From Limnanthes douglasii subsp. nivea (taxonomy: Eukaryota > Streptophyta > Magnoliopsida > Brassicales > Limnanthaceae): a DNA stretch of 64,000 nt. The translations under genes and the position numbers were made by a program. Shown piece after piece: positions 5,757 through 52,073 of the stretch (its first letter is position 1; each line of letters begins with the position of its first letter). The notes under the pieces were generated by a model. That model made no database searches and was not told where the DNA came from. It saw only the letters and a program-made list of their open reading frames with translations. Location: contig JAUPFV010000004.1 of NCBI GenBank assembly GCA_036936605.1, forward strand, positions 179,818,807 through 179,882,806, read 5' to 3'.

Positions 5757-6030
5757 AACCAACCAATTCAACCAACCAACCAACCAACCACCCAACCAAC
5801 CAACCAACCACCCACCCAACCAACCACCCAACCACCCACCCACCCAACCAACCAGCCACCCACCCACCCACCCACCCAACCAACCAACCACCCACCCACC
5901 CACCCAACCAACCAACCAACCACCCACCCAACCAACCAACCAACCAACCAATTCAACCAACCAACCACCCAACCAACCAACAAACCACTCAACCAATTCA
6001 ACCAACCAACCACCCAACCAACCACCCACC

Positions 6031-6624
6031 TAGAGATGTCAAATGGGACGCGACACGGCGGGATTTAGTGTGTGTACGGTAATCTGTCACGGTACGCACA
6101 TTATTTTATAACGGCAGAACACGGTAGAGCACGACGTGACTCACTAACACGATTGTCATGGTATAAGCCGTCACGATTACGGTAGACACGGCACACGGCA
6201 GACACGGCACACGTAGACATTGTAAAATTATTGTCACGGCAGTACACCATATAGATTAGTAATATAATTTTATTTTTTATTATACTTTAATCATTAATAC
6301 GTTTAATTAAAATGTATACACACGTCATATTAGTATTTTAACAAATATTAAATAATAAATAAAGTTAATGCTTGATAAACTAATTATTAATTATTATATT
6401 TTAAAAAAATTTATTTATAGTGTCGTGATATTTTTTTTATTTATTACTAATTTAATTTATTAGCGGTAAAAAATTTATGAGATTGAATTATTGAAGAATA
6501 AAAAATAAATTTTATTTATTTTAGCCGTTCACAGTTTATACTCTTGCGGGCCAGGAGTTATACAAACGGGGTGGTCAAATATTTTGTCATTTCATTATCA
6601 GCTTGTGGACTTTCTGTTGACACC
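6031..6624 (+). repeat. Module B1: hAT-like terminus plus AT-rich body
   Basis: Type copy of module B. It begins TAGAGATGTCAAATGGG, a hAT-superfamily-type terminal sequence, followed by about 200 bp rich in CG with recurring CACGGCACACG and CACGGCAGACACGG motifs like hAT subterminal repeats. The rest is AT-rich, and the end is CTGTTGACACC running into the tetranucleotide tract. No matching inverted terminus is present at the right end and no transposase is encoded, so it looks like a one-ended hAT fragment. The hAT assignment is by terminal motif only. This copy has TTTTAAAAAAATT where most have TTTTGAATTTTT. Confidence 0.85.
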
Positions 6625-6903
6625 CAACCAACCACCAACCAACCAACCAACCAACCAACCAACCAACCAACCAACCAACCAACCAACCAACCACCCAACC
6701 AACCAATTCAACCAACCAACCAACCAACCACCCAACCAACCAACCACCCAACCACCCACCCAACCAACCAACCACCCAACCAACCAATTCAACCAACCAC
6801 CCAACCAACCAACCACCCAACCAACCAATTCAACCAACCAACCAACCACCCAACCAACCAACCAACCACTCAACCAATTCAACCAACCAACCAACCACCC
6901 ACC

Positions 6904-7500
6904 TAGAGATGTCAAATGGGACGCGACACGGCGGGATTTAGCGTGTGTACGGTAATCTGTCACGGTACGCACGTTATTTTATAACGGCAGAACACGGTAA
7001 AGCACGGCGTGACTCACTAACACGATTGTCATGGTATAAGCCGTCACGATTACGGTAGACACGGCACACGGCAGACACGGCACACGTAGACATCGTAAAA
7101 TTATTGTCACGCCAGTACACTATATAGATTATTAATATAATTTTATTTTTTATTATACTTTAATCATTAATACGTTTAATTAAAATGTATACACACGTAA
7201 TATATTAGTATTTTAACAAATATTAAATAATAAATAAAGTTATTGCTTGATAAACTAATTATTAATTATTATATTTTGAATTTTTTTATTTATAGTGCGG
7301 TGATATTTTTTTTATTTATTATTAATTTAGTTTATTAGCGGTAAAAAAATTTATGAGATTGAATTATTGAAGAATAAAAAATAAATTTTATTTATTTTAG
7401 CCGTTCAGAGTTTATACTCTTGCGGGCCATGAGTTATACAAACGGGGTGGTCAAATATTTTGTCATTTCATTATCAGCTTGTGGACTTTCTATTGACACC
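6904..7500 (+). repeat. Module B2
   Basis: Full-length copy; carries GTTCAGAG near its right end and ends TCTATTGACACC. Confidence 0.9.
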
Positions 7501-7751
7501 CAACCAACCACCCACCCAACCAACCACCCACCAACCAACCAACCAACCAACCAACCAACCAACCAACCAACCAACCAATCAACCAACCAATTCAACCAAC
7601 CAACCAACCACCCAACCACTCAACCAATTAATCCAACCAACCAACCAACCACCCACCCAACCAACCAACCACCCAACCAACCAATTCAACCAACCAACCA
7701 ACCACCCAACCAACCAACCAACCAATTCAACCAACCAACCAACCACCCACC

Positions 7752-8347
7752 TAGAGATGTCAAATGGGACGCGACACGGCGGGATTTAGCTTGTGCACGG
7801 TAATCTGTCACGGTACGCACGTTATTTTATAACGGCAGAACACGGTAAAGCACGGCGTGACTCACTAACACGATTGTCATGGTATAAGCCGTCACGATTA
7901 CGGTAGACACGGCACACGGCAGACACGGCACACGTAGACATGGTAAAATTATTGTCACGACAGTACACCATATAGATTATTAATATAATTTTATTTTTTA
8001 TTATACTTTAATCATTAATACGTTTAATTAAAATGTATACACACGTAATATATTAGTATTTTAACAAATATTAAATAATAAATAAAGTTATTGCTTGATA
8101 AACTAATTATTAATTATTATATTTTGAATTTTTTTATTTATAGTGCGGTGATATTTTTTTTATTTATTATTAATTTAGTTTATTAGCGGTAAAAAATTTA
8201 TGAGATTGAATTATTGAAGAATAAAAAATAAATTTTATTTATTTTAGCCGTTCACAGTTTATACTCTTGCGGGCCAGGAGTTATACAAACGGGGTGGTCA
8301 AATATTTTGTCATTTCATTATCAGCTTGTGGACTTTCTGTTGACACC
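7752..8347 (+). repeat. Module B3
   Basis: Full-length copy; GCTTGTGCACGG precedes it in its left flank-derived start, and it ends CTGTTGACACC. Confidence 0.9.
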
Positions 8348-8461
8348 CAACCAACCACCCACCCAACCAACCAACCAACCACCCAACCAACCAATTCAAC
8401 CAACCAACCAACCACCCAACCAACCAACCAACCACTCAACCAATTCAACCAACCACCCACC

Positions 8462-8990
8462 TAGAGATGTCAAATGGGACGCGACACGGCGGGATTTAGC
8501 GTGTGTACGATAATCTGTCACGGTACGCACGTTATTTTATAACGGCAGAACACAGTAGAGCACGGCGTAACTCACTAACACGATTGTCATGGTATAAGCC
8601 GTCATGATTACGGCAGACACGGCACACGTAGACATGGTAAAATTATTGTCACGGCAGTAGACCATATAGATTATTAATATAATTTTATTTTTTATTATAC
8701 TTTAATCATTAATACGTTTAATTAAAATGTATACACACTTGATAAACTAATTATTAATTATTATATTTTGAGTTTTTTTATTTATAGTGCGGTGATATTT
8801 TTTTATTTATTATTAATTTAGTTTATTAGCGGTAAAAAATTTATGAGATTGAATTATTGAAGAATAAAAAATAAATTTTATTTATTTTAGCCGTTCAGAG
8901 TTTATACTCTTGCGGGCCAGGAGTTATACAAACGGGGTGGTCAAATATTTTGTCATTTCATTATGAGCTTGTGGACTTTCTGTTGACACC
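8462..8990 (+). repeat. Module B4, short form
   Basis: Lacks the 50-bp segment that normally lies between ACACAC and TTGATAAAC, and one CACGGCAGACACGG motif. Confidence 0.9.
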
Positions 8991-9128
8991 CAACCAACCA
9001 CCCACCCAACCAACCAACCAACCAACCAACCACCCACCCAACCAACCAATTCAACCAACCAACCAACCAACCACTCAACCAATTCAACCAACCAACCACC
9101 CAACCAACCACCCAACCAACCACCCACC

Positions 9129-9706
9129 TAGAGATGTCAAATGGGACGCGACACGGCGGGATTTAGCGTGTGTACGGTAATCTGTCACGGTACGCACGTT
9201 ATTTTATAACGGCAGAACACGGTAGAGCACGGCGTGACTCACTAACACGATTGTCATGGTATAAGCCGTCACGATTACGGTAGACACGGCACACGTAGAC
9301 ATGGTAAAATTATTGTCACGGCAGTACACCATATAGATTATTAATATAATTTTATTTTTTATTATACTTTAATTATTAATACGTTTAAGTAAAATGTATA
9401 CACACGTAATATATTAGTATTTTAACAAATATTAAATAATAAATAAAGTTATTGCTTGATAAACTAATTATTAATTATTATATTTTGAATTTTTTTATTT
9501 ATAGTGCGGTGATTTTTTTTATTTATTATTAATTTAGTTTATTAGCAGTAAAAAATTTATGAGATTGAATTATTGAAGAATAAAAAATAAATTTTATTTA
9601 TTTTAGCCGTTCACAGTTTATACTCTTGCGGGCCAGGAGTTATACAAACGGGGTGGTAAAATATTTTGTCATTTCATTATCAGCTTGTGGACTTTTGGTT
9701 GACACC
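9129..9706 (+). repeat. Module B5
   Basis: Has the 50-bp segment but a shortened subterminal region; ends in the TTGGTTGACACCG variant that usually precedes a B' copy. Confidence 0.9.
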
Positions 9707-9859
9707 GAACCAACCACCCACCCAACCAACCAATTACCCACCCAACCACCCACCCAACCAACCAACCAACCAACCAACCAACCACCCAACCAACCAATTC
9801 AACCAACCAACCACCCAACCAACCAATTCAACCACCCACCCACCCAACCAACCAACCAA

Positions 9860-10059
9860 TTTATGTGATTTTTTTTTTTTATTAATTTAGTTTATTAGCA
9901 GTAAAAAATTTATGAGATTGAATTATTGAAGAATAAAAAATAAATTTTATTCATTTTAGCTGTTCACAGTTTATACTCTTGCGGGCCAGGAGTTATACAA
10001 ACGGGGTGGTCAAATTTTTTGTCATTTCATTATCAGCTTGTGGACTTTTGGTTGACACC
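9860..10059 (+). repeat. Module B'1, 5'-truncated B
   Basis: Only the right third of B. The tetranucleotide tract joins it at CCAATTTATGTGATTTTT; the hAT-like end is absent. Ends TTGGTTGACACC. Confidence 0.9.
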
Positions 10060-10066
10060 GAACCAA

Positions 10067-10097
<31 letters not shown>

Positions 10098-10187
10098 CCC
10101 AACCAACCAACCACCCACCCACCCAACCAACCAACCAACCACCCACCCACCCACCCAACCAACCAATCACCCACCCAACCAACCAAT

Positions 10188-10218
<31 letters not shown>

Positions 10219-10750
10219 CCACCCACACAACCAACCAACCAACCAACCAACCAACCAACCAACCAACCACCCAATTCAACCAACCAACCACCCAACCAAC
10301 CAATTCAACCAACCACCCACCCAACCAACCAATTCAACCAACCACCCAACCAACCACTCACCCACCCAACCAACCAACCAACCAATTCAAACAACCACTC
10401 AACCAACCAATTCAACCAACCAACCAACCAACCACCCACCCAACCAATCAACCACCCAACCAACCAACCAACCAACCACCCACACACACAACCAACCAAC
10501 CACCCAACCAACCAACCAACCAACCACCCACCCAACCAACCAACCAACCACCCACCCACCCACCCACCCAACCAACCAACCAACCACCCACCCACCCACC
10601 CACCCAACCAACCAACCACCCACCCACCCACACACCCAACCACCCAACCAACCAACCAACCACCCAACCAACCACCCAACCAATCAACCAACCAACCAAC
10701 CACCCAACCAACCAATTCAACCAACCAACCAACCAACCACCCAACCTCGG
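10060..10750. repeat. Large tetranucleotide block before A2
   Basis: CCAA/CCCA tract with a CCCACACACACAACC interruption near 10480 and TTCAAACAACC near 10386; both recur in other large blocks. Confidence 0.95.
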
Positions 10751-11225
10751 CACCTGTTTGAATTCGATATGCTCGAATTAAGAGATTAAGCATTAAAGCT
10801 CCTTTAAGTATTGAATAATATTTTTTTATTTTTTGTGAACTTTGACTTGACTTTTCATTTAGTTAAATACTAGTTAGGAGTCAGTTAGAAGTAATACCTT
10901 ATTGCTCCACATATTTTTTTCCAAGCAGAGTCATGATATAAAGTTTTATATTATTTTATCTTCCTCTCTAATTAATACCACACTTACTTTGTAATCTGAT
11001 ACTGTCGTATTCAGGTACCAACCTACTCCTTGTTGTGGCTTCGTATTTATTTATGGCGATGCCAAGAAATTTTTGATGTTGTTGAGTGCATCTTTGCACT
11101 TTAGAGTCCACTAAAACTTTCATGTTCCTTTCAATACTTCGAAAGGAGGTCAATATTTATCTGGGCATTGGACACAAACTTGTCTCGCTTACCATTTATC
11201 CTAGAAATTTCACTGACTGAACGTC
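10751..11225 (-). repeat. Module A2
   Basis: Full copy; shares ATATTTATCTGGG and the GAACGTC end with A5, its counterpart in repeat P. Confidence 0.93.
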
Positions 11226-11365
11226 AACCAACCAATTCAACCAACCAACCAACCAACCACCCAACCAACCAACCAACCAACCACCCACCCACCCAACCAA
11301 CCAACCAACCAACCAACCATCCACCCACCCACCCAACCAATCACCCACCCACCCACCCAACCAAT

Positions 11366-11396
<31 letters not shown>

Positions 11397-11935
11397 CCAA
11401 CCAACCAACCACCCAATTCAACCAACCAACCACCCAACCAACCAATTCAACCGACCACCCACCCAACCAACCAATTCAACCAACCACCCAACCGACCACC
11501 CACCCACCCAACCAACCAACCAACCAATTCAAACAACCACTCAACCAACCAATTCAACCAACCAACCAACCACCCACCCAACCAATTCAACCAACCAACC
11601 AACCAACCACCAACCCAACCAACCAACCAACCAACCACCCACCCAACCAACCAACCAAACAACCAACCAACCAACCACCCACCCAACCAATCAACCACTC
11701 AACCAACCAACTAACCAACCAACCACCCACACACAACCAACCAACCACCCAACCAACCAACCAACCAACCACCCACCCAACCAACCAACCAACCAACCAC
11801 CCACCCACCCACCCAACCAACCAACCAACCACCCACCCAACCAACCACCCAACCAATCAACCAACCAACCAACCAACCACCCAACCAACTAATTCAACCA
11901 ACCAACCAACCCACCAACCAACCACCCAACCTCGG
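11226..11935. repeat. Large tetranucleotide block between A2 and A3
   Basis: Contains CAACCGACC interruptions (about 11450 and 11493) and CCAACTAACC; the same set is seen at 17679-18346. Confidence 0.95.
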
Positions 11936-12410
11936 CACCTGTTTGAATTCGATATGCTCGAATTAAGAGATTAAGCATTAAAGCTCCTTTAAGTATTGAA
12001 TAATATTTTTTTATTTTTTGTGAACTTTGACTTGACTTTTCATTTAGTTAAATACTAGTTAGGAGTCAGTTAGAAGTAATACATTATTGCTCCACATATT
12101 TTTTTCCAAGCAGAGTCATGATATAAAGTTTTATATTATTTTATCTTCCTCTCTAATTAATACCACACTTACTTTGTAATCTGATATTGTCGTATTCAGT
12201 TACCAACCTACTCCTTGTTGTGGCTTCGTATTTATTTATGGCGATGCCAAGAAATTTTTGATGTTGTTGAGTGCATCTTTGCACTTTAGAGTCCACTAAA
12301 ACTTTCATGTTCCTTTCAATACTTCGAAAGGATGTCAATATTTGTCTAGGCATTGGACACAAACTTGTCTCGCTTACCATTTATCCTAGAAATTTCACTG
12401 ACTGAACGCC
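11936..12410 (-). repeat. Module A3
   Basis: Variants TACATTATTGC, TTCAGTTACC and GGATGTCAATATTTGTCTAGG are shared with A6 only, as far as I compared. Confidence 0.93.
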
Positions 12411-12683
12411 AACCAACCAATTCAACCAACCAACCAACCAACCAACCACCCAACCAACCAACCAACCACCCAACCACCCACCCAACCACCCACCCACCCA
12501 ACCAACCAACCAACCACCCACCCACCCACCCACTCAACCAACCAACCACCCACCCACCCAACCAACCAACCAACCAACCAACCACCCACCCACCCACCCA
12601 CCCAACCAACCAACCACCCACCCAACCACCCAACCACCCACCCAACCAACCAACCAACCAATTCAACCAACCAACCACCCACC

Positions 12684-13212
12684 TAGAGACGTCAAATGGG
12701 ACGCGACACGGCGGGATTTAGCGTCTGTACGGTAATCTGTCACGGTACGCACATTATTTTATAACGGCAGAACACGGTAGAGCACGACGTGACTCACTAA
12801 CACGATTGTCATGGTATAAGCCGTCACGATTACGGCAGACACGGCACACGTAGACATGGTAAAATTATTGTCACGGCAGTACACCATATAGATTATTAAT
12901 ATAATTTTATTTCTTATTATACTTTAATCATTAATACGTTTAATTAAAATGTATACACACTTGATAAACTAATTATTAATTATTATATTTTGAATTTCTT
13001 TATTTATAGTGCGGTGATATTTTTTTATTTATTATTAATTTAGTTTATTAGCGGTAAAAAATTTATGAGATTGAATTATTGAAGAATAAAAAATAAATTT
13101 TATTTATTTTAGCCGTTCACAGTTTATACTCTTGCGGGCCAGGAGTTATACAAACGGGGTGGTCAAATATTTTGTCATTTCATTATCAGCTTGTGGACTT
13201 TCTGTTGACACC
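12684..13212 (+). repeat. Module B6, short form
   Basis: Starts TAGAGACGTC (CG instead of TG), has the 50-bp deletion and GCGTCTGTACGG; counterpart of B9 and B15. Confidence 0.93.
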
Positions 13213-13394
13213 CAACCAACCACCCACACAACCCACCAACCAACCAACCAACCAACCAACCAACCAACCAACCACCCACCCAACCAACCACCCACCGAAC
13301 CAACCAATTCAACCAACCAACCAACCAACCACCCAACCAACCAACCAACCACTCAACCAATTCAACCAACCAACCACCTAACCAACCACCCACC

Positions 13395-13988
13395 TAGAGA
13401 TGTCAAATGGGACGCGACACGGCGGGATTTAGCGTGTGTACGGTAATCTGTCACGGTACGCACGTTATTTTATAACGGCAGAACACGGTAGAGCACGGCG
13501 TGACTCACTAACACGATTGTCATGGTATAAGCCGTCACGATTACGGTAGACACGGCACACGGCAGACATGACACACGTAGACATGGTAAAATTATTGTCA
13601 CGGCAGTACACCATATAGATTATTAATATAATTTTATTTTTTATTATACTTTAATCATTAATACGTTTAATTAAAATGTATACACACGTAATATATTAGT
13701 ATTTTAACAAATATTAAATAATAAATAAAGTTATTGCTTGATAAACTAATTATTAATTATTATATTTTGAATTTTTTTATTTATAGTGTGGTGATTTTTT
13801 TTTATTATTATTAATTTAGTTTATTAGCAGTAAAAAATTTATGAGATTGAATTATTGAAGAATAAAAAATAAATTTTATTTATTTTAGCCGTTCACAGTT
13901 TATACTCTTGCGGGCCAGGAGTTATACAAACGGGGTGGTCAAATATTTTGTCATTTCATTATCAGCTTGTGGACTTTTGGTTGACACC
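13395..13988 (+). repeat. Module B7
   Basis: Has GGCAGACATGACACACG and a TTATTATTATT tract; counterpart of B10 and B16; ends TTGGTTGACACCG. Confidence 0.93.
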
Positions 13989-14137
13989 GAACCAACCACC
14001 CACCCAACCAACCAATCACCCACCCAACCAACCAACCAACCAACCAACCAACCAACCAACCACCCAACCAACCAATTCAACCAACCAACCACCCAACCAA
14101 CCAATTCAACCACCCACCCACCCAACCAACCAACCAA

Positions 14138-14340
14138 TTTATGTGATTTTTTTTTATTATTATTAATTTAGTTTATTAGCAGTAAAAAATTTATGAGATT
14201 GAATTATTGAAGAATAAAAAATAAATTTTATTTATTTTAGCTGTTCACAGTTTATACTCTTGCGGGCCAGGAGTTATACAAACGGGGTGGTCAAATATTT
14301 TGTCATTTCATTATCAGCTTGTGGACTTTTGGTTGACACC
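14138..14340 (+). repeat. Module B'2, truncated B
   Basis: Same TTTATGTGATTTTT breakpoint as B'1. Confidence 0.93.
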
Positions 14341-14412
14341 GAACCAACCACCCACCCAACCAACCAACCAACCACCCACCCACCCACCCAACCAACCACT
14401 CACCCACCCAAT

Positions 14413-14443
<31 letters not shown>

Positions 14444-14814
14444 CCAACCAACCAACCAACCAACCAACCACCCAATTCAACCAACCAACCACCCAACCAA
14501 CCAATTCAACCAACCACCCACCCAACCAACCAATTCAACCAACCACCCAACCAACCACTCACCCACCCAACCAACCAACCAACCAATTCAAACAACCACT
14601 CAACCAACCAATTCAACCAACCAACCAACCAACCACCCACCCAACCAATCAACCACCCAACCAACCAACCAACCAACCAACCAACCACCCACACACACAA
14701 CCAACCAACCACCCAACCAACCAACCAACCAACCACCCACCCAACCAACCAACCAACCACCCACCCACCAACCCAACCAACCAACCAACCAACCAACCAA
14801 CCACCCACCCTCGG
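14341..14814. repeat. Large tetranucleotide block before A4
   Basis: Carries the CCACACACACAACC and TTCAAACAACC interruptions; ends CCACCCTCGG, unlike the usual CCAACCTCGG. Confidence 0.95.
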
Positions 14815-15290
14815 CACCTGTTTGAATTCGATATGCTCGAATTAAGAGATTAAGCATTAAAGCTCCTTTAAGTATTGAATAATATTTTTTTATTTTTTGT
14901 GAACTTTGACTTGACTTTTCATTTAGTTAAATACTAGTTAGGAGTCAGTTAGAAGTAATACCTTATTGCTCCACATACTTTTTTTCCAAGCAGAGTCATG
15001 ATATAAAGTTTTATATTATTTTATCTTCCTCTCTAATTAATACCACACTTACTTTGTAATCTGATACTGTCGTATTCAGGTACCAACCTACTCCTTGTTG
15101 TGGCTTCGTATTTATTTATGGCGATGCCAAGAAATTTTTGATGTTGTTGAGTGCATCTTTGCACTTTAGAGTCCACTAAAACTTTCATGTTCCTTTCAAT
15201 ACTTCGAAAGGAGGTCAATATTTGTCTGGGCATTGGACACAAACTTGTCTCGCTTACCATTTATCCTAGAAATTTCACTGACTGAACGCC
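14815..15290 (-). repeat. Module A4
   Basis: Has CACATACTTTTTTTCC, shared with A7, A9, A10 and A11. Confidence 0.93.
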
Positions 15291-15596
15291 AACCAACCAA
15301 TTCAACCAACCAACTAACCAACCAATTCAACCAACCAACCAACCACCCACCAACCAACTAACCAACCAATTCAACCAACCAACCAACCACCCACCCACCC
15401 ACCCAACCACCCACCCACCCACCCAACCACCCACCCAACCAACCAACCAACCAACCAACCAACCAACCAACCAACCAACCAACCACCCACCCACCAAACC
15501 AACCAACCAACCACCCACCCACCCAACCAACCTCCCAACCAACCAACCAACCACTTAACCAATTCAACCAACCAACCACCCAACCAACCACCCACC

Positions 15597-16198
15597 TAGA
15601 GATGTCAAATGGGACGCGACACGGCGGGATTTAGCGTGTGTACGGTAATCTGTCACGGTACGCACATTATTTTATAACGGCAAAACACGGTAGAGCACGA
15701 CGTGACTCACTAACACGATTGTCATGGTATAAGCCGTCACGATTACGGTAGACACGGCACGGCACACGGCAAACACGGCACACGTAGACATTGTAAAATT
15801 ATTGTCACGGCAGTACACCATATAGATTATTAATATAATTTTATTTTTTATTATACTTTAATCATTAATACGTTTAATTAAAATGTATACACACGTAATA
15901 TATTTGTATTTTAACAAATATTAAATAATAAATAAAGTTATTGCTTGATAAACTAATTATTAATTATTATATTTTGAATTTTTTTATTTATAGTGCGCTG
16001 ATATTTTTTTTTATTTATTATTAATTTAGTTTATTAGCGGTAAAAAATTTATGAGATTGAATTATTGAAGAATAAAAAATAAATTTTATTTATTTTAGCC
16101 GTTCACAGTTTATACTCTTGCGGGCCAGGAGTTATACAAACGGGGTGGTCAAATATTTTGTCATTTCATTATCAGCTTGTGGACTTTCTGTTGACACC
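15597..16198 (+). repeat. Module B8
   Basis: Variants CACGGCACGGCACACGGC, GCAAAACACGG and GTGCGCTGATA match B11 and B17. Confidence 0.93.
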
Positions 16199-16354
16199 CA
16201 ACCAACCAACCAATTACCCACCCAACCAACCAATTACCCACCAACCAACCACCCAACCAACCAACCAACCAACCAACCACCCAACCAACCAATTCAACCA
16301 ACCAACCACCCAACCAACCAATTCAACCACCCACCCACCCAACCAACCAACCAA

Positions 16355-16552
16355 TTTATGTGATTTTTTTTTTATTAATTTAGTTTATTAGCAGTAAAAA
16401 ATTTATGAGATTGAATTATTGAAGAATAAAAAATAAATTTTATTTATTTTAGCTGTTCACAGTTTATACTCTTGCGGGCCAGGAGTTATACAAACGGGGT
16501 GGTCAAATATTTTGTCATTTCATTATCAGCTTGTGGACTTTTGGTTGACACC
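16355..16552 (+). repeat. Module B'3, truncated B
   Basis: Standard B' breakpoint; preceded by a tract with CCAATTACCC interruptions. Confidence 0.93.
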
Positions 16553-16559
16553 GAACCAA

Positions 16560-16590
<31 letters not shown>

Positions 16591-16680
16591 CCCAACCAAC
16601 CAACCACCCACCCACCCAACCAACCAACCAACCACCCACCCACCCACCCAACCAACCAATCACCCACCCAACCAACCAAT

Positions 16681-16727
<47 letters not shown>

Positions 16728-17203
16728 CCAACCAACCAACCAACCAACCAACCAACCACCCAATTCAACCAACCAACCACCCAACCAACCAATTCAACCA
16801 ACCACCCACCCAACCAACCAATTCAACCAACCACCCAACCAACCACTCACCCACCCAACCAATCAACCAACCAACCAATTCAAACAACCACTCAACCAAC
16901 CAATTCAACCAACCAACCAACCAACCACCCACCCAACCAATCAACCACCCAACCAACCAACCAACCAACCACCCACACACACAACCAACCAACCACCCAA
17001 CCAACCAACCAACCAACCACCCACCCAACCAACCAACCAACCACCCACCCACCCACCCACCCAACCAACCAACCACCCACCCACCCACCCACACACCCAA
17101 CCAACCAACCAACCAACCAACCACCCAACCAACCACCCAACCAATCAACCAACCAACCAACCAACCAATTCAACCAACCAACCAACCAACCACCCAACCT
17201 CGG
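16553..17203. repeat. Large tetranucleotide block before A5
   Basis: Same interruption order as 10060-10750, its counterpart upstream of A2. Confidence 0.95.
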
Positions 17204-17678: not shown

Positions 17679-17826
17679 AACCAACCAATTCAACCAACCA
17701 ACCAACCAACCACCCAACCAACCAACCAACCAACCACCCACCCACCCAACCAACCAACCAACCAACCAACCAACCATCCACCCACCCACCCAACCAACCA
17801 ATCACCCACCCACCCACCCAACCAAT

Positions 17827-41092: not shown

Positions 41093-41567
41093 CACCTGTT
41101 TGAATTCGATATGCTCGAATTAAGAGATTAAGCATTAAAGCTCCTTTAAGTATTGAATAATATTTTTTTATTTTTTGTGAACTTTGACTTGACTTTTCAT
41201 TTAGTTAAATACTAGTTAGGAGTCAGTTAAAAGTAATACCTTATTGCTCCACATATTTTTTTCCAAGCAGAGTCATGATATAAAGTTTTATATTATTTTA
41301 TCTTCCTCTCTAATTAATACCACACTTACTTTGTAATCTGATACTGTCGTATTCAGGTACCAACCTACTCCTTGTTGTGGCTTCGTATTTATTTATGGCG
41401 ATGCCAAGAAATTTTTGATGTTGTTGAGTGCATCTTTGCACTTTAGAGTCCACTAAAACTTTCATGTTCCTTTCAATACTTCGAAAGGAGGTCAATATTT
41501 GTCTAGGCATTGGACACAAACTTGTCTCGCTTACCATTTATCCTAGAAATTTCACTGACTGAACGCC
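41093..41567 (-). repeat. Module A18
   Basis: As A14. Confidence 0.93.
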
Positions 41568-41670
41568 AACCAACAAATTCAACCAACCAACCAACCAACC
41601 AACCACCCAACCAACCAACCAACCACCCAACCACCCACCCAACCACCCACCCACCCAACCAACCAACCAA

Positions 41671-41701
<31 letters not shown>

Positions 41702-41776
41702 CCCAACCACCCACCCACCCAACCACCCACCCACCCAACCAACCAACCAACCAATTCAACCAACCAACCACCCACC

Positions 41777-42367
41777 TAGAGACGTCAAATGGGACGCGAC
41801 ACGGCGGGATTTAGCGTGTGTACGGTAATCTGTCACGGTACGCACATTATTTTATAACGGCAGAACACGGTAGAGCACGACGTGACTCACTAACACGATT
41901 GTCATGGTATAAGCCGTCACGATTACGGTAGACACGGCACACGGCAGACACGGCACACGTAGACATGGTAAAATTATTGTCATGGCAGTACACCATATAG
42001 ATTATTAATATAATTTTATTTTTTATTATACTTTAATCATTAATACGTTTAATTAAAATATATACACACGTAATATATTATTAGTATTTTAACAAATATT
42101 AAATAATAAATAAAGTTATTGCTTGATAAACTAATTATTAATTATTATATTTTGAATTTTTTTATTTATAGTGCGCTGATATTTTTTTTATTTATTATTA
42201 ATTTAGTTTATTAGCGGTAAAAAATTTATGAGATTGAATTATTGAAGAATAAAAAATAAATTTTATTTATTTTAGCCGTTCACAGTTTATACTCTTGCGG
42301 GCCAGGAGTTATACAAACGGGGTGGTCAAATATTTTGTTATCAGCTTGTGGACTTTCTATTGACACC
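41777..42367 (+). repeat. Module B24
   Basis: As B20 (ATTGTCATGGC, TTTTGTTATCAGC). Confidence 0.93.
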
Positions 42368-42565
42368 CAACCAACCACCCACCCACCCACCCAACCAACC
42401 ACCCACCCACCCACCCAACCAACCAACCAACCAACCAACCAACCAACCAACCAACCAACCAACCAACCACCCAACCAACCAACCAATTTAACCAACCAAC
42501 CAACCAACCAACCACCCAACCAACCAACCAACCACTCAACCAATTCAACCAACCAACCACCCACT

Positions 42566-43159
42566 TAGAGATGTCAAATGGGACGCGACACCGCGGGATT
42601 TAGCGTGTGTACGGTAATCTGTCACGATACGCACGTTATTTTATAACGGCAGAACACGGTAGAACACGGCGTGACTCACTAACACGATTGTCATGGTATA
42701 AGCCGTCACGATTACGGTAGACACGGCACACGGCAGACACGGCACACGTAGACATGGTAAAATTATTGTCACGGCAGTACACCATATAGATTATTAATAT
42801 AATTTTAATTTTTATTATACTTTAATCATTAATACGTTTAATTAAAATGTATACACACGTAATATATTAGTATTTTAACAAATATTAAATAATAAATAAA
42901 GTTATTGCTTGATAAACTAATTATTAATTATTATATTTTGAATTTTTTTATTTATAGTGCGGTGATTTTTTTTATTTATTATTAATTTAGTTTATTAGCA
43001 GTAAAAAATTTATGAGATTGAATTATTGAAGAATAAAAAATAAATTTTATTTATTTTAGCCGTTCACAGTTTATACTCTTGCGGGCCAGGAGTTATACAA
43101 ACGGGGTGGTCAAATATTTTGTCATTTCATTATCAGCTTGTGGACTTTCTGTTGACACC
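42566..43159 (+). repeat. Module B25
   Basis: As B21, with the CCCACTTAGAG start. Confidence 0.93.
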
Positions 43160-43300
43160 CAACCAACCACCCACCCAACCAACCAACCAACCACCCACCG
43201 AACCAACCAACCAACCAATTCAACCAACCACCCACCCAACCAACCAATTCAACCAACCACCCAAACAACCAACCACCCACCCACCCAACCAACCAACCAA

Positions 43301-43499
43301 TTTATGTGATTTTTTTTATTGTTAATTTAGTTTATTAGCAGTAAAAAATTTATGAGATTGAATTATTGAAGAATAAAAAATAAATTTTATTTATTTTAGC
43401 TGTTCACAGTTTATACTCTTGCGGGCCAGGAATTATACAAACGGGGTGGTCAAATATTTTGTCATTTTATTATCAGCTTGTGGACTTTTGGTTGACACC
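43301..43499 (+). repeat. Module B'8, truncated B
   Basis: As B'7. Confidence 0.93.
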
Positions 43500-43948
43500 G
43501 AACCAACCACCCACCCAACCAACCAACCAACCACCCACCCAACCAATCAATCACCCACCCACCCAACCAATCACCCACCCAACCAACCACCCAACCAACC
43601 ACCCACCCAACCAACCAACCAACCAACCAACCAACCACCCAATTCAACCAACCAACCAATTCAACCAACCACCCACCCAACCAACCAATTCAACCAACCA
43701 CCCACCCACCCAACCAACCAACTAATTCAAACAACCACTCAACCAACCAACCAACCAACCACCCACCCAACCAATTCAACCAACCAACCAACCAACCACC
43801 CACCCAACCAACCAACCAACTACCCACCCAACCAACCAACCAACCACCCAACCAACCAACCACCCAACCAACCAACCAACCAACCACCCACACACACAAT
43901 CAACCAACCACCCAACCAACCACCCAACCAACCAACCAATTCAACCAA

Positions 43949-43980
<32 letters not shown>

Positions 43981-44339
43981 CCAACCAACCAACCAACCAA
44001 CCACCCACCCACCCAACCAACCAACCAACCAACCATCCACCCACCCAACCAACCAATCACCCACCCACCCACCCACCCAACCAACCAATCACCCACCCAA
44101 CCAACCACCCTCCCAACCAACCAACCAACCAACCAACCAACCAACCAACCACCCACCCAACCAACCAACCAACCAACCACCCACCCACCCAACCAACCAC
44201 CCACCCACCCACCCACCAAACCAACCAACCAACCAACCACCCACCCAACCAACCACCCAACCAATCAACCAACCAACCAACCAACCACCCAACCAACCAA
44301 TTCAACCAACCAACCAACCAACCAACCACCCAACCTCGG
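43500..44339. repeat. Large tetranucleotide block before A19
   Basis: Counterpart of 36588-37463, slightly shorter, with a CCAACTACCC interruption near 43818. Confidence 0.95.
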
Positions 44340-44814
44340 CACCTGTTTGAATTCGATATGCTCGAATTAAGAGATTAAGCATTAAAGCTCCTTTAAGTAT
44401 TGAATAATATTTTTTTATTTTTTGTGAACTTTGACTTGACTTTTCATTTAGTTAAATACTAGTTAGGAGTCAGTTAAAAGTAATACCTTATTGCTCCACA
44501 TATTTTTTTCCAAGCAGAGTCATGATATAAAGTTTTATATTATTTTATCTTCCTCTCTAATTAATACCACACTTACTTTGTAATCTGATACTGTCGTATT
44601 CAGGTACCAACCTACTCCTTGTTGTGGCTTCGTATTTATTTATGGCGATGCCAAGAAATTTTTGATGTTGTTGAGTGCATCTTTGCACTTTAGAGTCCAC
44701 TAAAACTTTCATGTTCCTTTCAATACTTCGAAAGGAGGTCAATATTTGTCTAGGCATTGGACACAAACTTGTCTCGCTTACCATTTATCCTAGAAATTTC
44801 ACTGACTGAACGCC
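44340..44814 (-). repeat. Module A19
   Basis: As A15 but without its private change. Confidence 0.93.
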
Positions 44815-44917
44815 AACCAACAAATTCAACCAACCAACCAACCAACCAACCACCCAACCAACCAACCAACCACCCAACCACCCACCCAACCACCCACCCA
44901 CCCAACCAACCAACCAA

Positions 44918-44948
<31 letters not shown>

Positions 44949-45007
44949 CCCAACCACCCACCCACCCAACCAACCAACCAACCAATTCAACCAACCAACC
45001 ACCCACC

Positions 45008-45603
45008 TAGAGACGTCAAATGGGACGCGACACGGCGGGATTTAGCGTGTGTACGGTAATCTGTCACGGTACGCACATTATTTTATAACGGCAGAACACG
45101 GTAGAGCACGACGTGACTCACTAACACGATTGTCATGGTATAAGCCGTCACGATTACGGTAGACACGGCACACGGCAGACACGGCACACGTAGACATGGT
45201 AAAATTATTGTCACGGCAGTACACCATATAGATTATTAATATAATTTTATTTTTTATTATACTTTAATCATTAATACGTTTAATTAAAATGTATACACAC
45301 GTAATATATTAGTATTTTAACAAATATTAAATAATAAATAAAGTTATTGCTTGATAAACCAATTATTAATTATTATATTTTGAATTTTTTTATTTATAGT
45401 GCGCTGATATTTTTTTTATTTATTATTAATTTAGTTTATTAGCGGTAAAAAATTTATGAGATTGAATTATTGAAGAATAAAAAATAAATTTTATTTATTT
45501 TAGCCGTTCACAGTTTATACTCTTGCGGGCCAGGAGTTATACAAACGGGGTGGTCAAATATTTTGTCATTTCATTATCAGCTTGTGGACTTTCTGTCGAC
45601 ACC
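45008..45603 (+). repeat. Module B26
   Basis: As B22, including the CTGTCGACACC end. Confidence 0.93.
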
Positions 45604-45745
45604 CAACCAACCACCCACCCAACCAACCAACCAACCAACCACCCAACCAACCAATTCAACCAACCAACCAACCAACCACCCAACCAACCAACCAACCAAC
45701 CACTCAACCAATTCAACCAACCAACCACCCAACCAACCACCCACC

Positions 45746-46274
45746 TAGAGATGTCAAATGGGACGCGACACGGCGGGATTTAGCGTGTGTACGGTAATCT
45801 GTCACGGTACGCACGTTATTTTATAACGGCAGAACACGGTAGAGCACGGCGTGACTCACTAACACGATTGTCATGGTATAAGCCGTCACGATTACGGCAG
45901 ACACGACACACGTAGACATGGTAAAATTATTGTCACGGCAGTACACCATATAGATTATTAATATAATTTTATTTCTTATTATACTTTAATCATTAATACG
46001 TTTAATTAAAATGTATACACACTTGATAAACTAATTATTAATTATTATATTTTGACTTTTTTTATTTATAGTGCGGTGATATTTTTTTATTTATTATTAA
46101 TTTAGTTTATTAGCGGTAAAAAAATTATGAGATTGAATTATTGAAGAATAAAAAATAAATTTTATTTATTTTAGCCGTTCACAGTTTATACTCTTGCGGG
46201 CCAGGAGTTATACAAATGGGGTGGTCAAATATTTTGTCATTTCATTATCAGCTTGTGGACTTTCTGTTGACACC
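45746..46274 (+). repeat. Module B27, short form
   Basis: As B23; private TTTTGACTTTTTT. Confidence 0.93.
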
Positions 46275-46449
46275 CAACCAACCACCCACCCAACCAACCA
46301 ACCAACCAACCAACCAACCAACCACCCACCGAACCAACCAATTCAACCAACCAACCAACCAACCACCCAACCAACCAACCAACCACTCAACCAATTCAAC
46401 CAACCAACCACCCAACCAACCACCCACCCACCCAACCAACCAACCAACC

Positions 46450-46539
46450 ACTTCGAAAGGAGGTCAATATTTATCTGGGCATTGGACACAAACTTGTCTC
46501 GCTTACCATTTATCCTAGAAATTTCACTGACTGAACGTC
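46450..46539 (-). repeat. Partial module A20 (right 90 bp)
   Basis: Same ACTTCGAAAGG breakpoint as A16. Confidence 0.92.
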
Positions 46540-46675
46540 AACCAACCAATTCAACCAACCAACCAACCAACCACCCAACCAACCAACCAACCAACCACCC
46601 ACCCACCCAACCAACCAACCAACCAACCAACCATCCACCCACCCACCCAACCAACCACCCACCCACCCACCCACC

Positions 46676-46706
<31 letters not shown>

Positions 46707-46915
46707 TCAACCAACCAACCAACCAACCAACCAACCACCCAATTCAACCAACCAACCACCCAACCAACCAATTCAACCGACCACCCACCCAACCAACCAA
46801 CCAACCAACCAACCACCCACCCAACCAATCAACCACCCAACCAATCAACCAACCAACCAACCAACCACTCAACCAACCAATTCAACCAACCAACCAACCA
46901 ACCACCCAACCTCGG

Positions 46916-47391
46916 CACCTGTTTGAATTCGATATGCTCGAATTAAGAGATTAAGCATTAAAGCTCCTTTAAGTATTGAATAATATTTTTTTATTTTTTG
47001 TGAACTTTGACTTGACTTTTCATTTAGTTAAATACTAGTTAGGAGTCAGTTAGAAGTAATACCTTATTGCTCCACAAATTTTTTTTCCAAGCAGAGTCAT
47101 GATATAAAGTTTTATATTATTTTATCTTCCTCTCTAATTAATACCACACTTACTTTGTAATCTGATACTGTCGTATTCAGGTACCAACCTACTCCTTGTT
47201 GTGGCTTCGTATTTATTTATGGCGATGCCAAGAAATTTTTGATGTTGTTGAGTGCATCTTTGCACTTTAGAGTCCACTAAAACTTTCATGTTCCTTTCAA
47301 AACTTCGAAAGGAGGTTAATATTTATCTGGGCATTGGACACAAACTTGTCTCGCTTACCATTTATCCTAGAAATTTCACTTACTGAACACC
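46916..47391 (-). repeat. Module A21, last A copy
   Basis: Private variants CCACAAATTTT, CAAAACTTCGAAAGG and CTTACTGAACACC. Confidence 0.93.
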
Positions 47392-47665
47392 AACCAACCA
47401 ATTCAACCACCCAACCAACCAACCACCCAACCAACCACCCAACCACCCACCCACCCACCCACCCAACCCAACCAACCAACCAACCAATCAACCACCCACC
47501 CACCCAACCAACCAACCAACCAACCACCCACCCACCCACCCACCCACCCACCCACCCAACCAACCAACCAACCAACCACCCACCCACCCACCCACCCAAC
47601 CAACCAACCAACCAACCAACCACTCAACCAATTCAACCAACCAACCACCCAACCAACCACCCACC

Positions 47666-48261
47666 TAGAGATGTCAAATGGGACGCGACACGGCGGGATT
47701 TAGCGTGTGTACGGTAATCTGTCACGGTACGCACATTATTTTATAACGGCAGAACACGGTAGAGCACGACGTGACTCACTAACACGATTGTCATGGTATA
47801 AGCCGTCACGATTACGGTAGACACGGCACACGGCAGACACGGCACACGTAGACATGGTAAAATTATTGTCACGGCAGTACACCATATAGATTATTAATAT
47901 AATTTTATTTTTTATTATACTTTAATCATTAATACGTTTAATTAAAATGTATACACACGTAATATATTTGTATTTTAACAAATATTAAATAATAAATAAA
48001 GTTATTGCTTGATAAACTAATTATTAATTATTATATTTTAAAAAAAATTATTTATAGTGCGGTGATATTTTTTTTATTTATTAATAATTTAGTTTATTAG
48101 CGGTAAAAAATTTATGAGATTGAATTATTGAAGAATAAAAAATAAATTTTATTTATTTTAGCCGTTCATAGTTTATACTCTTGCGGGCCAGGAGTTATAC
48201 AAACGGGATGGTCAAATATTTTGTCATTTCATTATCAACTTGTGGACTTTCTGTTGACACC
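47666..48261 (+). repeat. Module B28
   Basis: TTTTAAAAAAAATT in place of TTTTGAATTTTT, as in B1 and B30; private GGGATGGTC and CAACTTGTGG. Confidence 0.93.
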
Positions 48262-48423
48262 CAACCAACCACCCACCCAACCAACCAACCAACCAACCAC
48301 CCACCCAACCAACCAACCAACCAACCAACCACCCAACCAACCAACCAATTCAATCAACCAACCAACCAACCACCCAACAAACCAACCAACCACTCAACCA
48401 ATTCAACCAACCAACCACCCACC

Positions 48424-49016
48424 TAGAGATGTCAAATGGGACGCGACACCGCGGGATTTAGCGTGTGTACGGTAATCTGTCACGATATGCACGTTATTTT
48501 ATAACTGCAGAACACGGTAGAACACGGCGTGACTCACTAACACGATTGTCATGGTATAAGCCGTCACGATTACGGTAGACACGGCACACGTAGACATGGC
48601 ACACGTAGACATGGTAAAATTATTGTCACGGTAGTACACCATATAGATTATTAATATAATTTTATTTTTTATTATACTTTAATCATTAATACGTTTAATT
48701 AAAATGTATACACACGTAATATATTAGTATTTTAACAAATATTAAATAATAAATAAAGTTATTGCTTGATAAACTAATTATTAATTATTATATTTTGAAT
48801 TTTTTTATTTATAGTGCGGTGATTTTTTTTTATTATTATTAATTTAGTTTATTAGCAGTAAAAAATTTATGAGATTGAATTATTGAAGAATAAAAAATAA
48901 ATTTTATTTATTTTAGCCGTTCACAGTTTATACTCTTGCGGGCCAGGAGTTATACAAACGGGGTGGTCAAATATTTTGTCATTTCATTATCAGCTTGTGG
49001 ACTTTTGGTTGACACC
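48424..49016 (+). repeat. Module B29
   Basis: CACCGCGGG as in B14; subterminal motif ACGTAGACATGGC duplicated; ends TTGGTTGACACCG. Confidence 0.93.
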
Positions 49017-49072
49017 GAACCAACCAATCACCCACCCACCCAACCAACCAACCAACCAACCAACCAACCAAC

Positions 49073-49103
<31 letters not shown>

Positions 49104-49214
49104 TTCAACCAACCAACCACCCAACCAACCAATTCAACCAACCACCCACCCAACCAACCAATTCAACCAACCACCCAACCAACCAACCACCCACCCACCC
49201 AACCAACCAACCAA

Positions 49215-49416
49215 TTTATGTGATTTTATTTTTATTATTAATTTAGTTTATTAGTAGTAAAAAAATTTATGAGATTGAATTATTGAAGAATAAAAAATAA
49301 ATTTTATTTATTTTAGCTGTTCACAGTTTATACTCTTGCGGGCCAGGAGTTATACAAACGGGGTGGTCAAATATTTTGTCATTTTATTATCAGCTTGTGG
49401 ACTTTTGGTCGACACC
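49215..49416 (+). repeat. Module B'9, truncated B
   Basis: Standard breakpoint; ends TTGGTCGACACCG. Confidence 0.93.
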
Positions 49417-49886
49417 GAACCAACCACCCACCCAACCAACCAACCAACCAACCACCCACACACCCAACCAACCAACCAACCACCCACCCACCCAACCAAC
49501 CAACCAACCAACCACCCACCCAACCAACCAACCACCCAACCAATCACCCACCCAACCAACCACCCAACCAACCACCCACCCAACCAACCAACCAACCAAC
49601 CACCCAATTCAACCAACCAACCAATTCAACCAACCACCCACCCAACCAACCAATTCAACCAACCACCCAACCAACCACCCACCCACCCAACCAACCAACT
49701 AATTCAAACAACCACTCAACCAACCAACCAACCAACCACCCAACCATCCAATTCAACCAACCAACCAACCACCCACCCACCCAACCAACCACCCACCCAC
49801 CCACCCACCCAACCAACCAACCACCCAACCAACCAACCAACCACTCAACCAATTCAACCAACCAACCACCCAACCAACCACCCACC
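49417..49886. repeat. Tetranucleotide block between B'9 and B30
   Basis: Unlike other blocks after a B', this one leads to a B module rather than an A. Confidence 0.95.
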
Positions 49887-50483
49887 TAGAGATGTCAAAT
49901 GGGACGCGACACGGTGGGATTTAGCGTGTGTACGGTAATCTGTCACGGTACGCACATTATTTTATAACGGCAGAACACGGTAGAGCACGACGTGACTCAC
50001 TAACACGATTGTCATGGTATAAGCCGTCACGATTACGGTAGACACGGCACACGGCAGACACGGCACACGTATACATGGTAAAATTATTGTCACGGCAGTA
50101 CACCATATAGATTATTAATATAATTTTATTTTTTATTATACTTTAATCATTAATACGTTTAATTAAAATGTATACACACGTAATATATTTGTATTTTAAC
50201 AAATATTAAATAATAAATAAAGTTATTGCTTGATAAACTAATTATTAATTATTATATTTTAAAAAAAAATTATTTATAGTGCGGTGATATTTTTTTTATT
50301 TATTACTAATTTAGTTTATTAGCGGTAAAAAATTTATGAGATTGAATTATTGAAGAATAAAAAATAAATTTTATTTATTTTAGCCGTTCACAGTTTATAC
50401 TCTTGCGGGCCAGGAGTTATACAAACGGGGTGGTCAAATATTTTGTCATTTCATTATCAGCTTGTGGACTTTCTGTTGACACC
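49887..50483 (+). repeat. Module B30
   Basis: Variants CACGGTGGG and ACGTATACATGG. Confidence 0.93.
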
Positions 50484-50746
50484 CAACCAACCACCCATCC
50501 AACCAACCACCCACCAACCAACCAACCAACCAACCACCCACCCAACCAACCAACCACCCAACCAACCAATTCAACCAACCAACCAACCACTCAACCAATT
50601 CAACCAACCAACCACCCAACCACCCATCCAACAAACCAACCACCCACCCAACCAACCAACCAACCACCCACCCAACCAATTCAACCAACCAACCACCCAA
50701 CCAACCAACCACTCAACCAATTCAACCAACCAACCAACCACCCACC

Positions 50747-51342
50747 TAGAGATGTCAAATGGGACGCGACACGGCGGGATTTAGCGTGTGTACGGTAATC
50801 TGTCACGGTACGCACGTTATTTTATAACGGCAGAACACGGTAAAGCACGGCGTGACTCACTAACACGATTGTCATGGTATAAGCCGTCACGATTACGGTA
50901 GACACGGCACACGGCAGACACGGCACACGTAGACATGGTAAAATTATTGTCACGGCAGTACACCATATAGATTATTAATATAATTTTATTTTTTATTATA
51001 CTTTAATCATTAATACGTTTAATTAAAATGTATACACACGTAATATATTAGTATTTTAACAAATATTAAATAATAAATAAAGTTATTGCTTGATAAACTA
51101 ATTATTAATTATTATATTTTGAATTTTTTTATTTATAGTGCGGTAATATTTTTTTTATTTATTATTAATTTAGTTTATTAGCGGTAAAAAATTTATGAGA
51201 TTGAATTATTGAAGAATAAAAAATAAATTTTATTTATTTTAGCCGTTCACAGTTTATACTCTTGCGGGCCAGGAGTTATACAAACGGGGTGGTCAAATAT
51301 TTTGTCATTTCATTATCAGCTTGTGGACTTTCTATTGACACC
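50747..51342 (+). repeat. Module B31, last B copy
   Basis: Private GCGGTAATAT; ends CTATTGACACCG. Confidence 0.93.
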
Positions 51343-52073
51343 GAACCACCCACCCACCCAACCAACCAACCAACCAACCAACCACCCACACACCCAACCA
51401 ACCAACCACCCACCCACCCAACCACCCAACCAATCACCCACCCACCCACCCAACCACCCAACCAATCACCCACCCAACCAACCACCCAATTCAACCAACC
51501 AACCACCCAACCAACCAATTCAACCAACCACCCACCCAACCAACCAATTCAACCAACCACCCAACCAACCAACCAATTCAACCAACCACCCACCCGCCCA
51601 ACCAACCAACCAATTCAAACAACCACCCAACCAACCAATTCAACCAACCAACCAACCACCCACCCAACCAATTCAACCACCCACCCAACCAACCAACCAC
51701 CCACCCAACCAACCAACCAACCAATCAACCACCCAACCAACCAACCAACCACCCACACACAACCAACCAACCACCCAACCAACCAACCAACCAACCACCC
51801 ACCCAACCAACCAACCAACCAATCAAACACCCACCCACCCAACCAACCAACCAACCAACCAACCAACCAACCAACCAACCAACCACCCACCCAACCACCC
51901 AACCAACCAACCAATCAACCACCCAACCAATCAACCAACCACCCAACCACCCAACCACCCAACCAACCAACCAACCACCCACCCGCCCAACCAACCAACC
52001 AACCAACCAACCACCCAACCAACCAACCAACCAACCAACCAACCAACCAACCAACCAACCAACCAACCAACCA
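51343..52073. repeat. Terminal tetranucleotide block of the satellite
   Basis: About 730 bp; the last 60 bp are a near-pure CCAA run ending at CCAATAAATAATAA. Confidence 0.95.

What the first reader, a model, noticed from the sequence alone, without database searches (positions are those of the whole stretch)
5757..52073. A 46-kb compound satellite made of A/C-only tetranucleotide tracts and two TE-derived modules
Long CCAA/CCCA tracts alternate with fixed-orientation modules A and B at nearly constant breakpoints (21 A pieces, 40 B pieces by eye). I know of no described plant satellite family with this composition, though I cannot search. It combines microsatellite slippage with segment duplication of retroelement and hAT fragments.
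Basis: partly seen in the sequence, partly recalled or inferred. Interest (0 to 1): 0.88.

Follow-up and report, generated by a model that had tools for sequence, protein, structure and literature searches.

The report
Compound satellite built from transposon joints
A 46-kb stretch of repeated DNA, made of a simple four-letter repeat alternating with broken pieces of two jumping genes, turns out to be one of several related arrays on at least four very large contigs of the same genome, and its joints show how such repeats can be born.

Summary
In detail: 5756-52074 holds 40 B pieces and 20 A pieces (21 with the flank copy), all on one strand, between 59 CCAA/CCCA tracts (18.1 kb, 96% A+C). The modules are now identified. 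B is the 5' end of a hAT transposon with about 0.42 kb deleted. A is antisense Ty3/gypsy reverse transcriptase-RNase H sequence, and it continues into the left flank.

The array is not alone. The window's own genome (1.78 Gb) has related arrays on three other contigs of 293-405 Mb; one read end to end is 73.6 kb with about 108 units. Elsewhere the unit is hAT end - gypsy piece - 114-bp module C - tract. Four such arrays share one hAT|gypsy joint, which the window lacks. One C441 array abuts a longer hAT; the window array abuts the gypsy.

Best explanation: one mixed locus (gypsy - C - tract - hAT) was tandemly duplicated through microhomology joins, spread, and diverged by tract slippage and unequal exchange. 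This is a new variant of a known kind (composite, TE-derived satellite; nearest plant case Cuscuta CUS-TR24). Function, chromatin, species and read support are untested. Many whole-genome searches did not complete.

The parts
4600..5273 (-). Left flank: old gypsy-like sequence continuing leftward from A0 (integrase-like piece 4600-4800, resemblance recalled)
   Evidence: Minus-strand frames; the integrase-like piece gave no rve hit in Pfam; A0 (the query itself) is the only one of 75 listed matches to reach query 1-74, the stretch left of A (40 of 397 candidates scored)
5274..5755 (-). A0, founder-like copy of module A: Ty3/gypsy RT-RNase H, coding sense on minus strand
   Evidence: PF17919 E 1.7e-4 for 5477-5641 minus; right-hand continuation in L048 matches RVT_1 E 7.4e-4; both below cut-off
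5756..52074 (+). Whole compound array
6031..6620 (+). B (first full copy): hAT 5' end 1-536 joined to transposase piece 533-590
6904..7496 (+). B full
7752..8343 (+). B full (nearest window copy to the C1 array's B piece)
8462..8986 (+). Bd: B with 48-bp internal deletion
9129..9702 (+). B full
9869..10055 (+). b: 5'-truncated B (joint CCAATTTATG just upstream)
10744..11223 (+). A
11929..12409 (+). A
12684..13208 (+). Bd
13395..13984 (+). B full
14143..14336 (+). b
14807..15289 (+). A
15597..16194 (+). B full
16364..16548 (+). b
17197..17676 (+). A
18340..18820 (+). A
19127..19651 (+). Bd
19818..20407 (+). B full
20574..20767 (+). b
21270..21752 (+). A
22008..22605 (+). B full
22666..23190 (+). 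Bd
23337..23922 (+). B full
24122..24711 (+). B full
24846..25033 (+). b
25682..26163 (+). A
26438..26962 (+). Bd
27145..27734 (+). B full
27893..28086 (+). b
28605..29976 (+). A followed by two directly abutting A copies, period 445, no tract between (joint microhomology GAA)
30217..30813 (+). B full
30866..31389 (+). Bd
31548..32133 (+). B full
32420..32902 (+). A
33232..33714 (+). A
34266..34746 (+). A; start of higher-order copy 34266-40546
34865..35451 (+). B full
35638..36227 (+). B full
36398..36583 (+). b
37457..37937 (+). A
38136..38724 (+). B full
38874..39398 (+). Bd
39574..39661 (+). a: 88-bp truncated A
40065..40546 (+). A
41086..41566 (+). A; start of second higher-order copy 41086-47388
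41777..42363 (+). B full
42566..43155 (+). B full
43310..43495 (+). b
44333..44813 (+). A
45008..45596 (+). B full
45746..46270 (+). Bd
46450..46537 (+). a: 88-bp truncated A
46909..47388 (+). A
47666..48257 (+). B full
48424..49012 (+). B full
49224..49405 (+). b
49887..50479 (+). B full (nearest relative of the first B, 6031)
50747..51338 (+). B full (nearest relative of B 6904)
51339..52074 (+). Terminal CCAA/CCCA tract, then (TAA)n-type flank

Best explanation
This is a composite satellite family, born by tandem duplication of one mixed locus. Inferred ancestral order: degenerate Ty3/gypsy RNase H-RT (module A and its continuation G) - a 114-bp AT-rich module C of unknown origin - a (CCAA/CCCA)n tract - the 5' end of a hAT transposon (module B). 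Shown: the units of the arrays read elsewhere are this order cut at hAT position 536 and gypsy position 405, so their recurring hAT|gypsy joint can be read as the duplication breakpoint. The window array is a second amplification form without that joint: G and C are absent (gypsy joined to tract at CGCCAA), about 0.42 kb of hAT is lost at CAAA, and hAT is joined to tract at CACC(C). Inferred: joins arose by microhomology-mediated repair or template switching, perhaps favoured by the G-rich TTGG/TGGG strand. Tracts then lengthened and shortened by 4-bp slippage, blocks of 2-7 kb were copied by unequal exchange, and arrays reached other chromosomes by an unidentified route.
For: hAT: a longer hAT continues from the B end beside the C441 array (L048), PF05699 E 1.9e-20 and PF14372 E 1.7e-7; a tract-free copy exists (L055). 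Gypsy: PF17919 E 1.7e-4, PF00078 E 7.4e-4. The exact hAT|gypsy joint string occurs 89 times in the C1 array and in each of the seven other array stretches read (1, 5, 3, 1, 2, 3, 4 times in L048-L053, L057), which sample three further arrays. C1 unit order B-A-C 108 times. Microhomology of 4, 2, 3, 3 and 1 bp at the five joins scored (P 0.0007 with equal bases; 0.002 at the real base composition). Between copies of higher-order blocks, tract indels are multiples of 4 bp in 45 of 52 cases over seven overlapping pairs. Only A0 of 75 listed matches continues left into gypsy.
Against: No locus with the whole ancestral order was seen. The window has 0 copies of the hAT|gypsy joint, so its link to the other arrays rests on shared A, B and tract only. 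The search for the gypsy flank elsewhere and that for G+C (111, 115, 120, 125, 131, 133, 136) did not complete. The genome searches scored only 40 of 305 and 40 of 397 candidates. Joints into or out of tracts, and G|C, were not scored for microhomology; by eye tract|A and tract|B335 show none that is clean. 16 of 59 modules have halves with different nearest relatives, so exchange is not confined to tracts. Oldest-at-the-edges is weak (P 0.025 with edges chosen after looking; copy 50747 is among the least diverged). RT and RNase H hits are below the Pfam cut-off.
Confidence: 0.68

Rival explanations
1. Each array arose separately: hAT elements insert preferentially beside CCAA tracts and gypsy pieces were captured again and again.
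For: The hAT 5' terminus TAGAGATG abuts a tract in the window (CCACC before it in most copies) and in L048-L053 (CAAC before it); the window lacks the hAT|gypsy joint of the other arrays; the older hAT copies L055 and L056 are not in tracts.
Against: Four other arrays share one hAT|gypsy joint. The same gypsy stretch, including the motif around its in-frame stop (CCATTTATCC), occurs in the window (22 times), the C1 array (96), L048-L050 and L057 (stop seen in translation in window and L048). C1's A piece equals A0 from 405 through 535.
Confidence: 0.12
2. Assembly artefact: collapsed or chimeric repeats.
For: No reads were available; the 445-bp A triplet (28605-29976) is perfect.
Against: Copies differ by up to 4.9% (B) and 2.1% (A); both flanks are different sequence; a related array on another contig was read end to end with sharp edges in unrelated DNA.
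Confidence: 0.05
3. Arrays spread as circular DNA that was reinserted, rather than by chromosomal exchange (a variant of the best explanation, not an alternative to it).
For: The C1 array starts inside B (497) and ends inside A (514), straight into unrelated DNA. Extrachromosomal circles from plant satellites have been surveyed (PMC2543021; title and start of abstract seen).
Against: The two ends are not adjacent in the unit, so one simple circle opening does not explain them; no circles were tested.
Confidence: 0.3
4. The tracts are unusual telomere-like or centromere sequence (TTGG/TGGG), and the modules are passengers.
For: G-rich strand with G4 motifs in 33 of 59 tracts; one array at 1.456-1.502 Mb of a 293-Mb contig.
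Against: The other places found are interstitial (for example 179.8 of 298 Mb, 123.8 of 405 Mb); no chromatin data; contig ends were not examined.
Confidence: 0.05

Closest known systems
CUS-TR24 loci of Cuscuta europaea (PMC8091179; passages and section 3.4 read)
   Same: Plant satellite loci mixed with simple-repeat arrays and transposable-element sequence; truncated units at tract edges; segment duplication.
   Different: There an existing satellite gave rise to (TAA)n tracts and was hit by LINE insertions from several source elements, with inversions. Here the unit itself is hAT + gypsy + tract, in one orientation within each array read, with shared joints.
Rye B-chromosome repeats E3900 and D1100 (PMC6210368 passages; table passage of PMC9659126)
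   Same: Long satellite units assembled from fragments of mobile elements (the table of PMC9659126 names Crwydryn and a Tnr1 MITE).
   Different: No simple-repeat tract is mentioned in the passages seen; described as B-chromosome specific. Here four large contigs carry arrays, and a longer stretch of each parent element is still attached to one array.
Composite satDNA monomers from 'TE graveyards' (PMC12628747; passages)
   Same: Monomer with successive stretches of different TEs.
   Different: That is a hypothesis for shuffled, degraded remnants. Here two large identifiable pieces keep their joints, and a tetranucleotide tract is a major part of the unit.
Retrotransposon-derived satellites of Lathyrus sativus (PMC7004042; title, start of abstract and a word search)
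   Same: Satellite from LTR-retrotransposon sequence.
   Different: By its title the source there is tandem repeats inside the retroelement; here an antisense RT-RNase H piece next to a tract.

Membership tests
Satellite DNA | Long head-to-tail tandem arrays in fixed orientation | tested here: met
Satellite DNA | Related arrays at several loci of one genome | tested here: met
Satellite DNA | Homogenisation / higher-order repeats | tested here: met
Satellite DNA | Heterochromatic location | not testable with these tools
   no chromatin or FISH data
Composite TE-derived satellite | Unit contains pieces of more than one transposable element | tested here: met
   hAT; gypsy (scores below cut-off)
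CUS-TR24-like loci | Pre-existing satellite monomer from which simple-repeat tracts grew | tested here: inconclusive
   modules in the loci read are TE pieces and C, whose origin is unknown; the search for C elsewhere did not complete
CUS-TR24-like loci | Recurrent LINE insertions at a target site in the monomer | not tested
   no LINE search was run
hAT transposon (source of B) | hAT transposase with C-terminal dimerisation domain | tested here: met
   PF05699 E 1.9e-20, PF14372 E 1.7e-7 on L048
hAT transposon (source of B) | Terminal inverted repeats and 8-bp target duplication | tested here: inconclusive
   5' end TAGAGATG repeated exactly; other end not reached (L058); no TTGACATCTCTA right of 52030 in the window at up to 2 mismatches
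Ty3/gypsy retrotransposon (source of A) | RT followed by RNase H | tested here: inconclusive
   PF00078 E 7.4e-4 and PF17919 E 1.7e-4, in that order on one strand, but both below the curated cut-off
Telomere-type repeat | Array at chromosome ends | tested here: inconclusive
   places found are mostly interstitial; contig ends were not examined

The most novel reading that the evidence does not exclude
The CCAA/CCCA tract is itself the engine: a G-quadruplex-prone microsatellite that breaks and restarts replication, so that whatever DNA lies beside it (a gypsy remnant on one side, a hAT on the other) is captured, duplicated and sent to other chromosomes, again and again with new breakpoints. 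This would be a 'capture-and-amplify' microsatellite, caught with parent sequence still attached at one end of two different arrays.
Probability: 0.22. Interest if true: 0.78.

Novelty: new variant of a known kind. Interest (0 to 1): 0.55.

Why it matters
Many satellites are too homogenised to show how they began. Here longer stretches of the hAT and of the gypsy sequence, a candidate duplication breakpoint and a nested series of later truncations can be read in one genome. That makes the birth, branching and spread between chromosomes of a plant-type satellite directly testable, including whether a simple-repeat tract drives it.

Tried and rejected
I first took the TTGACA at the end of B for a 3' terminal repeat of a small hAT element. 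The longer copies L048 and L055 showed it to lie in transposase coding sequence, so this was dropped. A purely local array was dropped once related arrays were found elsewhere. Tract-only recombination was considered and not upheld: 16 of 59 modules look mixed. The idea that AATTC interruptions mark lost C modules (CCAATTCAACC: 161 in the window array, 0 in the C1 array, where CCAATT and ATTCAACC border modules) remains a lead only. Rfam: 0 matches in the window. A motif search of papers listed 30 of 78 papers; none of those titles concerns satellite DNA (one concerns tetranucleotide microsatellite markers in a toad).

Searches made for a description in print. Judged by the listed titles and abstract openings, none shows a satellite of this make-up. 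They cover only the open-licence library and only the listed part of each result; repeat databases were not searched.

Changes: microhomology P from 0.0007 to 0.002 at the real base composition; the hAT|gypsy joint is absent from the window; the loci read represent four arrays, not eight. Confidence in the best explanation went from 0.70 to 0.68 for that reason.
Full report
CHECK OF THE OBSERVATION. Tracts number 59, total 18,082 bp, median 211 bp, 96.4% A+C. Modules add 28.8 kb, including the 556-bp flank copy. The two largest internal repeats are 6.7 kb at 93.8% and 6.1 kb at 97.1%.

INTERNAL HISTORY. Divergence among 31 B copies averages 2.2% (max 4.9), among 19 A copies 0.84% (max 2.1); the two 88-bp A pieces were left out and the 9 short B were scored apart (mean 1.8%). 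Joints are shared: one left joint in 16 of 16 long A, one in 9 of 9 short B, one in both 88-bp A and one in both steps of the 445-bp A tandem. The simplest reading is one event each, followed by copying. Of 60 neighbouring module pairs, 44 have a collinear partner pair elsewhere and 16 do not. The first two B copies (6031, 6904) are nearest to 49887 and 50747 near the other end. Edge copies are somewhat more diverged, P 0.025, but the edge set was chosen after looking and copy 50747 goes against it.

TRACTS. In seven aligned block pairs, tract indels are multiples of 4 bp in 8/8, 15/18, 3/3, 4/4, 6/6, 1/5 and 8/8 cases. The 1/5 is the old pair at the two array ends. The pairs are not independent: one is nested in the 18-indel pair, and three compare the same three copies. 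Tract substitutions exceed module substitutions in 7 of 7 pairs (for example 1.05% against 0.27%), though tract alignments are uncertain. The minus strand carries G-quadruplex motifs with G runs of three or more in 33 of 59 tracts; mean G4Hunter score is 1.24 against 0.05 (A) and -0.12 (B). This is motif evidence only.

WHAT THE MODULES ARE. A lies antisense in Ty3/gypsy pol: RNase H (PF17919, E 1.7e-4, below cut-off). In arrays elsewhere A continues to the right into sequence (G) that with the end of A matches the last part of RVT_1 (E 7.4e-4, below cut-off). The window's left flank continues A leftward; an integrase-like piece there is my recollection of the family and gave no Pfam rve hit. 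B matches the 5' end of a hAT. In L048 (C441, 45.1988 Mb) and L055 (C441, 278.716 Mb) the same sequence runs on through about 0.42 kb absent from B, then through B's last 58 bp. In L048 this lies in a transposase (PF05699, E 1.9e-20; PF14372, E 1.7e-7); L055 was not scored against Pfam. L056 is an older split copy at 77-89%.

RELATED ARRAYS. The window is G000:C334:179818807-179882806 of a 1.78-Gb genome in 633 contigs. (CCAA)6 occurs at 4127 + 1324 overlapping places; the window holds 194 and the C1 array 258 of these 5451. The C1 array, read whole, spans 123800721-123874361: 109 B, 109 A and 147 C pieces, all +, with order B-A-C 108 times. It begins inside B and ends inside A, straight in unrelated DNA. 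Searches with B (65 matches, 40 of 305 candidates scored) and A (75 matches, 40 of 397 scored) add C441 1.456-1.502 Mb, C441 45.147-45.199 Mb, C441 151.197 Mb, C112 214.52 Mb, C1 places between 124.39 and 124.56 Mb and C1 203.617-203.682 Mb (minus). Of these I hold only L048 and L050-L053 (C441, 45 Mb), L049 (C112), L057 (C441, 151 Mb) and 701 bp further right (L058).

A NESTED SERIES. C441 45-Mb units: B (1-536, 335-536 or 491-536) - A 405-556 - G - C - tract. The units of L057 and some of those in L049 lack the end of A and all of G, and in the C1 array 94 of 109 A pieces stop at 542 by BLAST while 1 reaches 556. That form is explained by a 124-bp loss between two CTA. The exact hAT|gypsy joint string occurs 89 times in the C1 array and in 7 of 7 other array stretches, but 0 times in the window. 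The window has long A (75-556), B with the 0.42-kb loss, and no clear C (best hit 33 bp, 85%, E 3e-4); its A pieces end before G. The C1 consensus equals A0 from 405 through 535 and differs from the nearest window B (7752) by 4 substitutions.

MECHANISM. Shown: shared joints, unit order, 4-bp tract changes, block copying, and microhomology of 4, 2, 3, 3 and 1 bp at the five joins scored (P 0.002 at real base composition). Joints with tracts, and G|C, were not scored; tract|A and tract|B335 show no clean microhomology by eye. Inferred: the ancestral order gypsy - G - C - tract - hAT, duplication at hAT536|gypsy405, and spread between contigs by an unknown route. No locus with the full order was seen. 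The search for the gypsy flank elsewhere was requested 10 times and that for G+C 7 times without an answer.

COMPARISON. The nearest plant case found is CUS-TR24 of Cuscuta (passages and section 3.4 read). It shares simple-repeat tracts and TE sequence but starts from an existing satellite with separate LINE insertions. Rye E3900/D1100 are assembled from mobile-element fragments (passages). PMC12628747 proposes composite satellites from TE remnants (passages). The nine paper searches named under Tried and rejected listed no family of this make-up.

VERDICT. An apparently real, multi-contig composite satellite whose origin can be partly read; long reads remain to confirm it. New variant of a known kind; interest 0.55. 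No function is shown.

Noticed in passing
52711-58381: A copia-type LTR retrotransposon on the minus strand lies just right of the array; LTR-like pieces 52711-53023/57984-58298 (88%) and 53044-53125/58300-58381 (83%); Pfam SH3_retrovirus and Pol_BBD above cut-off, copia gag just below.
   Followed up: partly
28605-29976: Three A copies abut with a perfect 445-bp period and no tract between; very recent duplication or assembly effect.
   Followed up: partly
5756-52074 and C1 array (L010-L014, L022-L024): CCAATTCAACC occurs 161 times in the window array and 0 times in the C1 array, where CCAATT and ATTCAACC instead border the modules; the interruptions may be scars of lost modules or empty sites.
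   Followed up: partly
C441:1456237-1502501: One related array lies within about 1.5 Mb of the start of a 293-Mb contig; whether this is near a chromosome end is unknown.
   Followed up: no
59041-59340 and 61380-61980: Further gypsy-like reverse transcriptase sequence, on the minus and plus strand respectively, in the right flank (read by eye, recalled motifs).
   Followed up: no
L055, C441:278715000-278717800: A longer hAT copy outside any tract; the sequence before its 5' end looks, by eye only, like a gene's upstream region. Its other end was not read.
   Followed up: no
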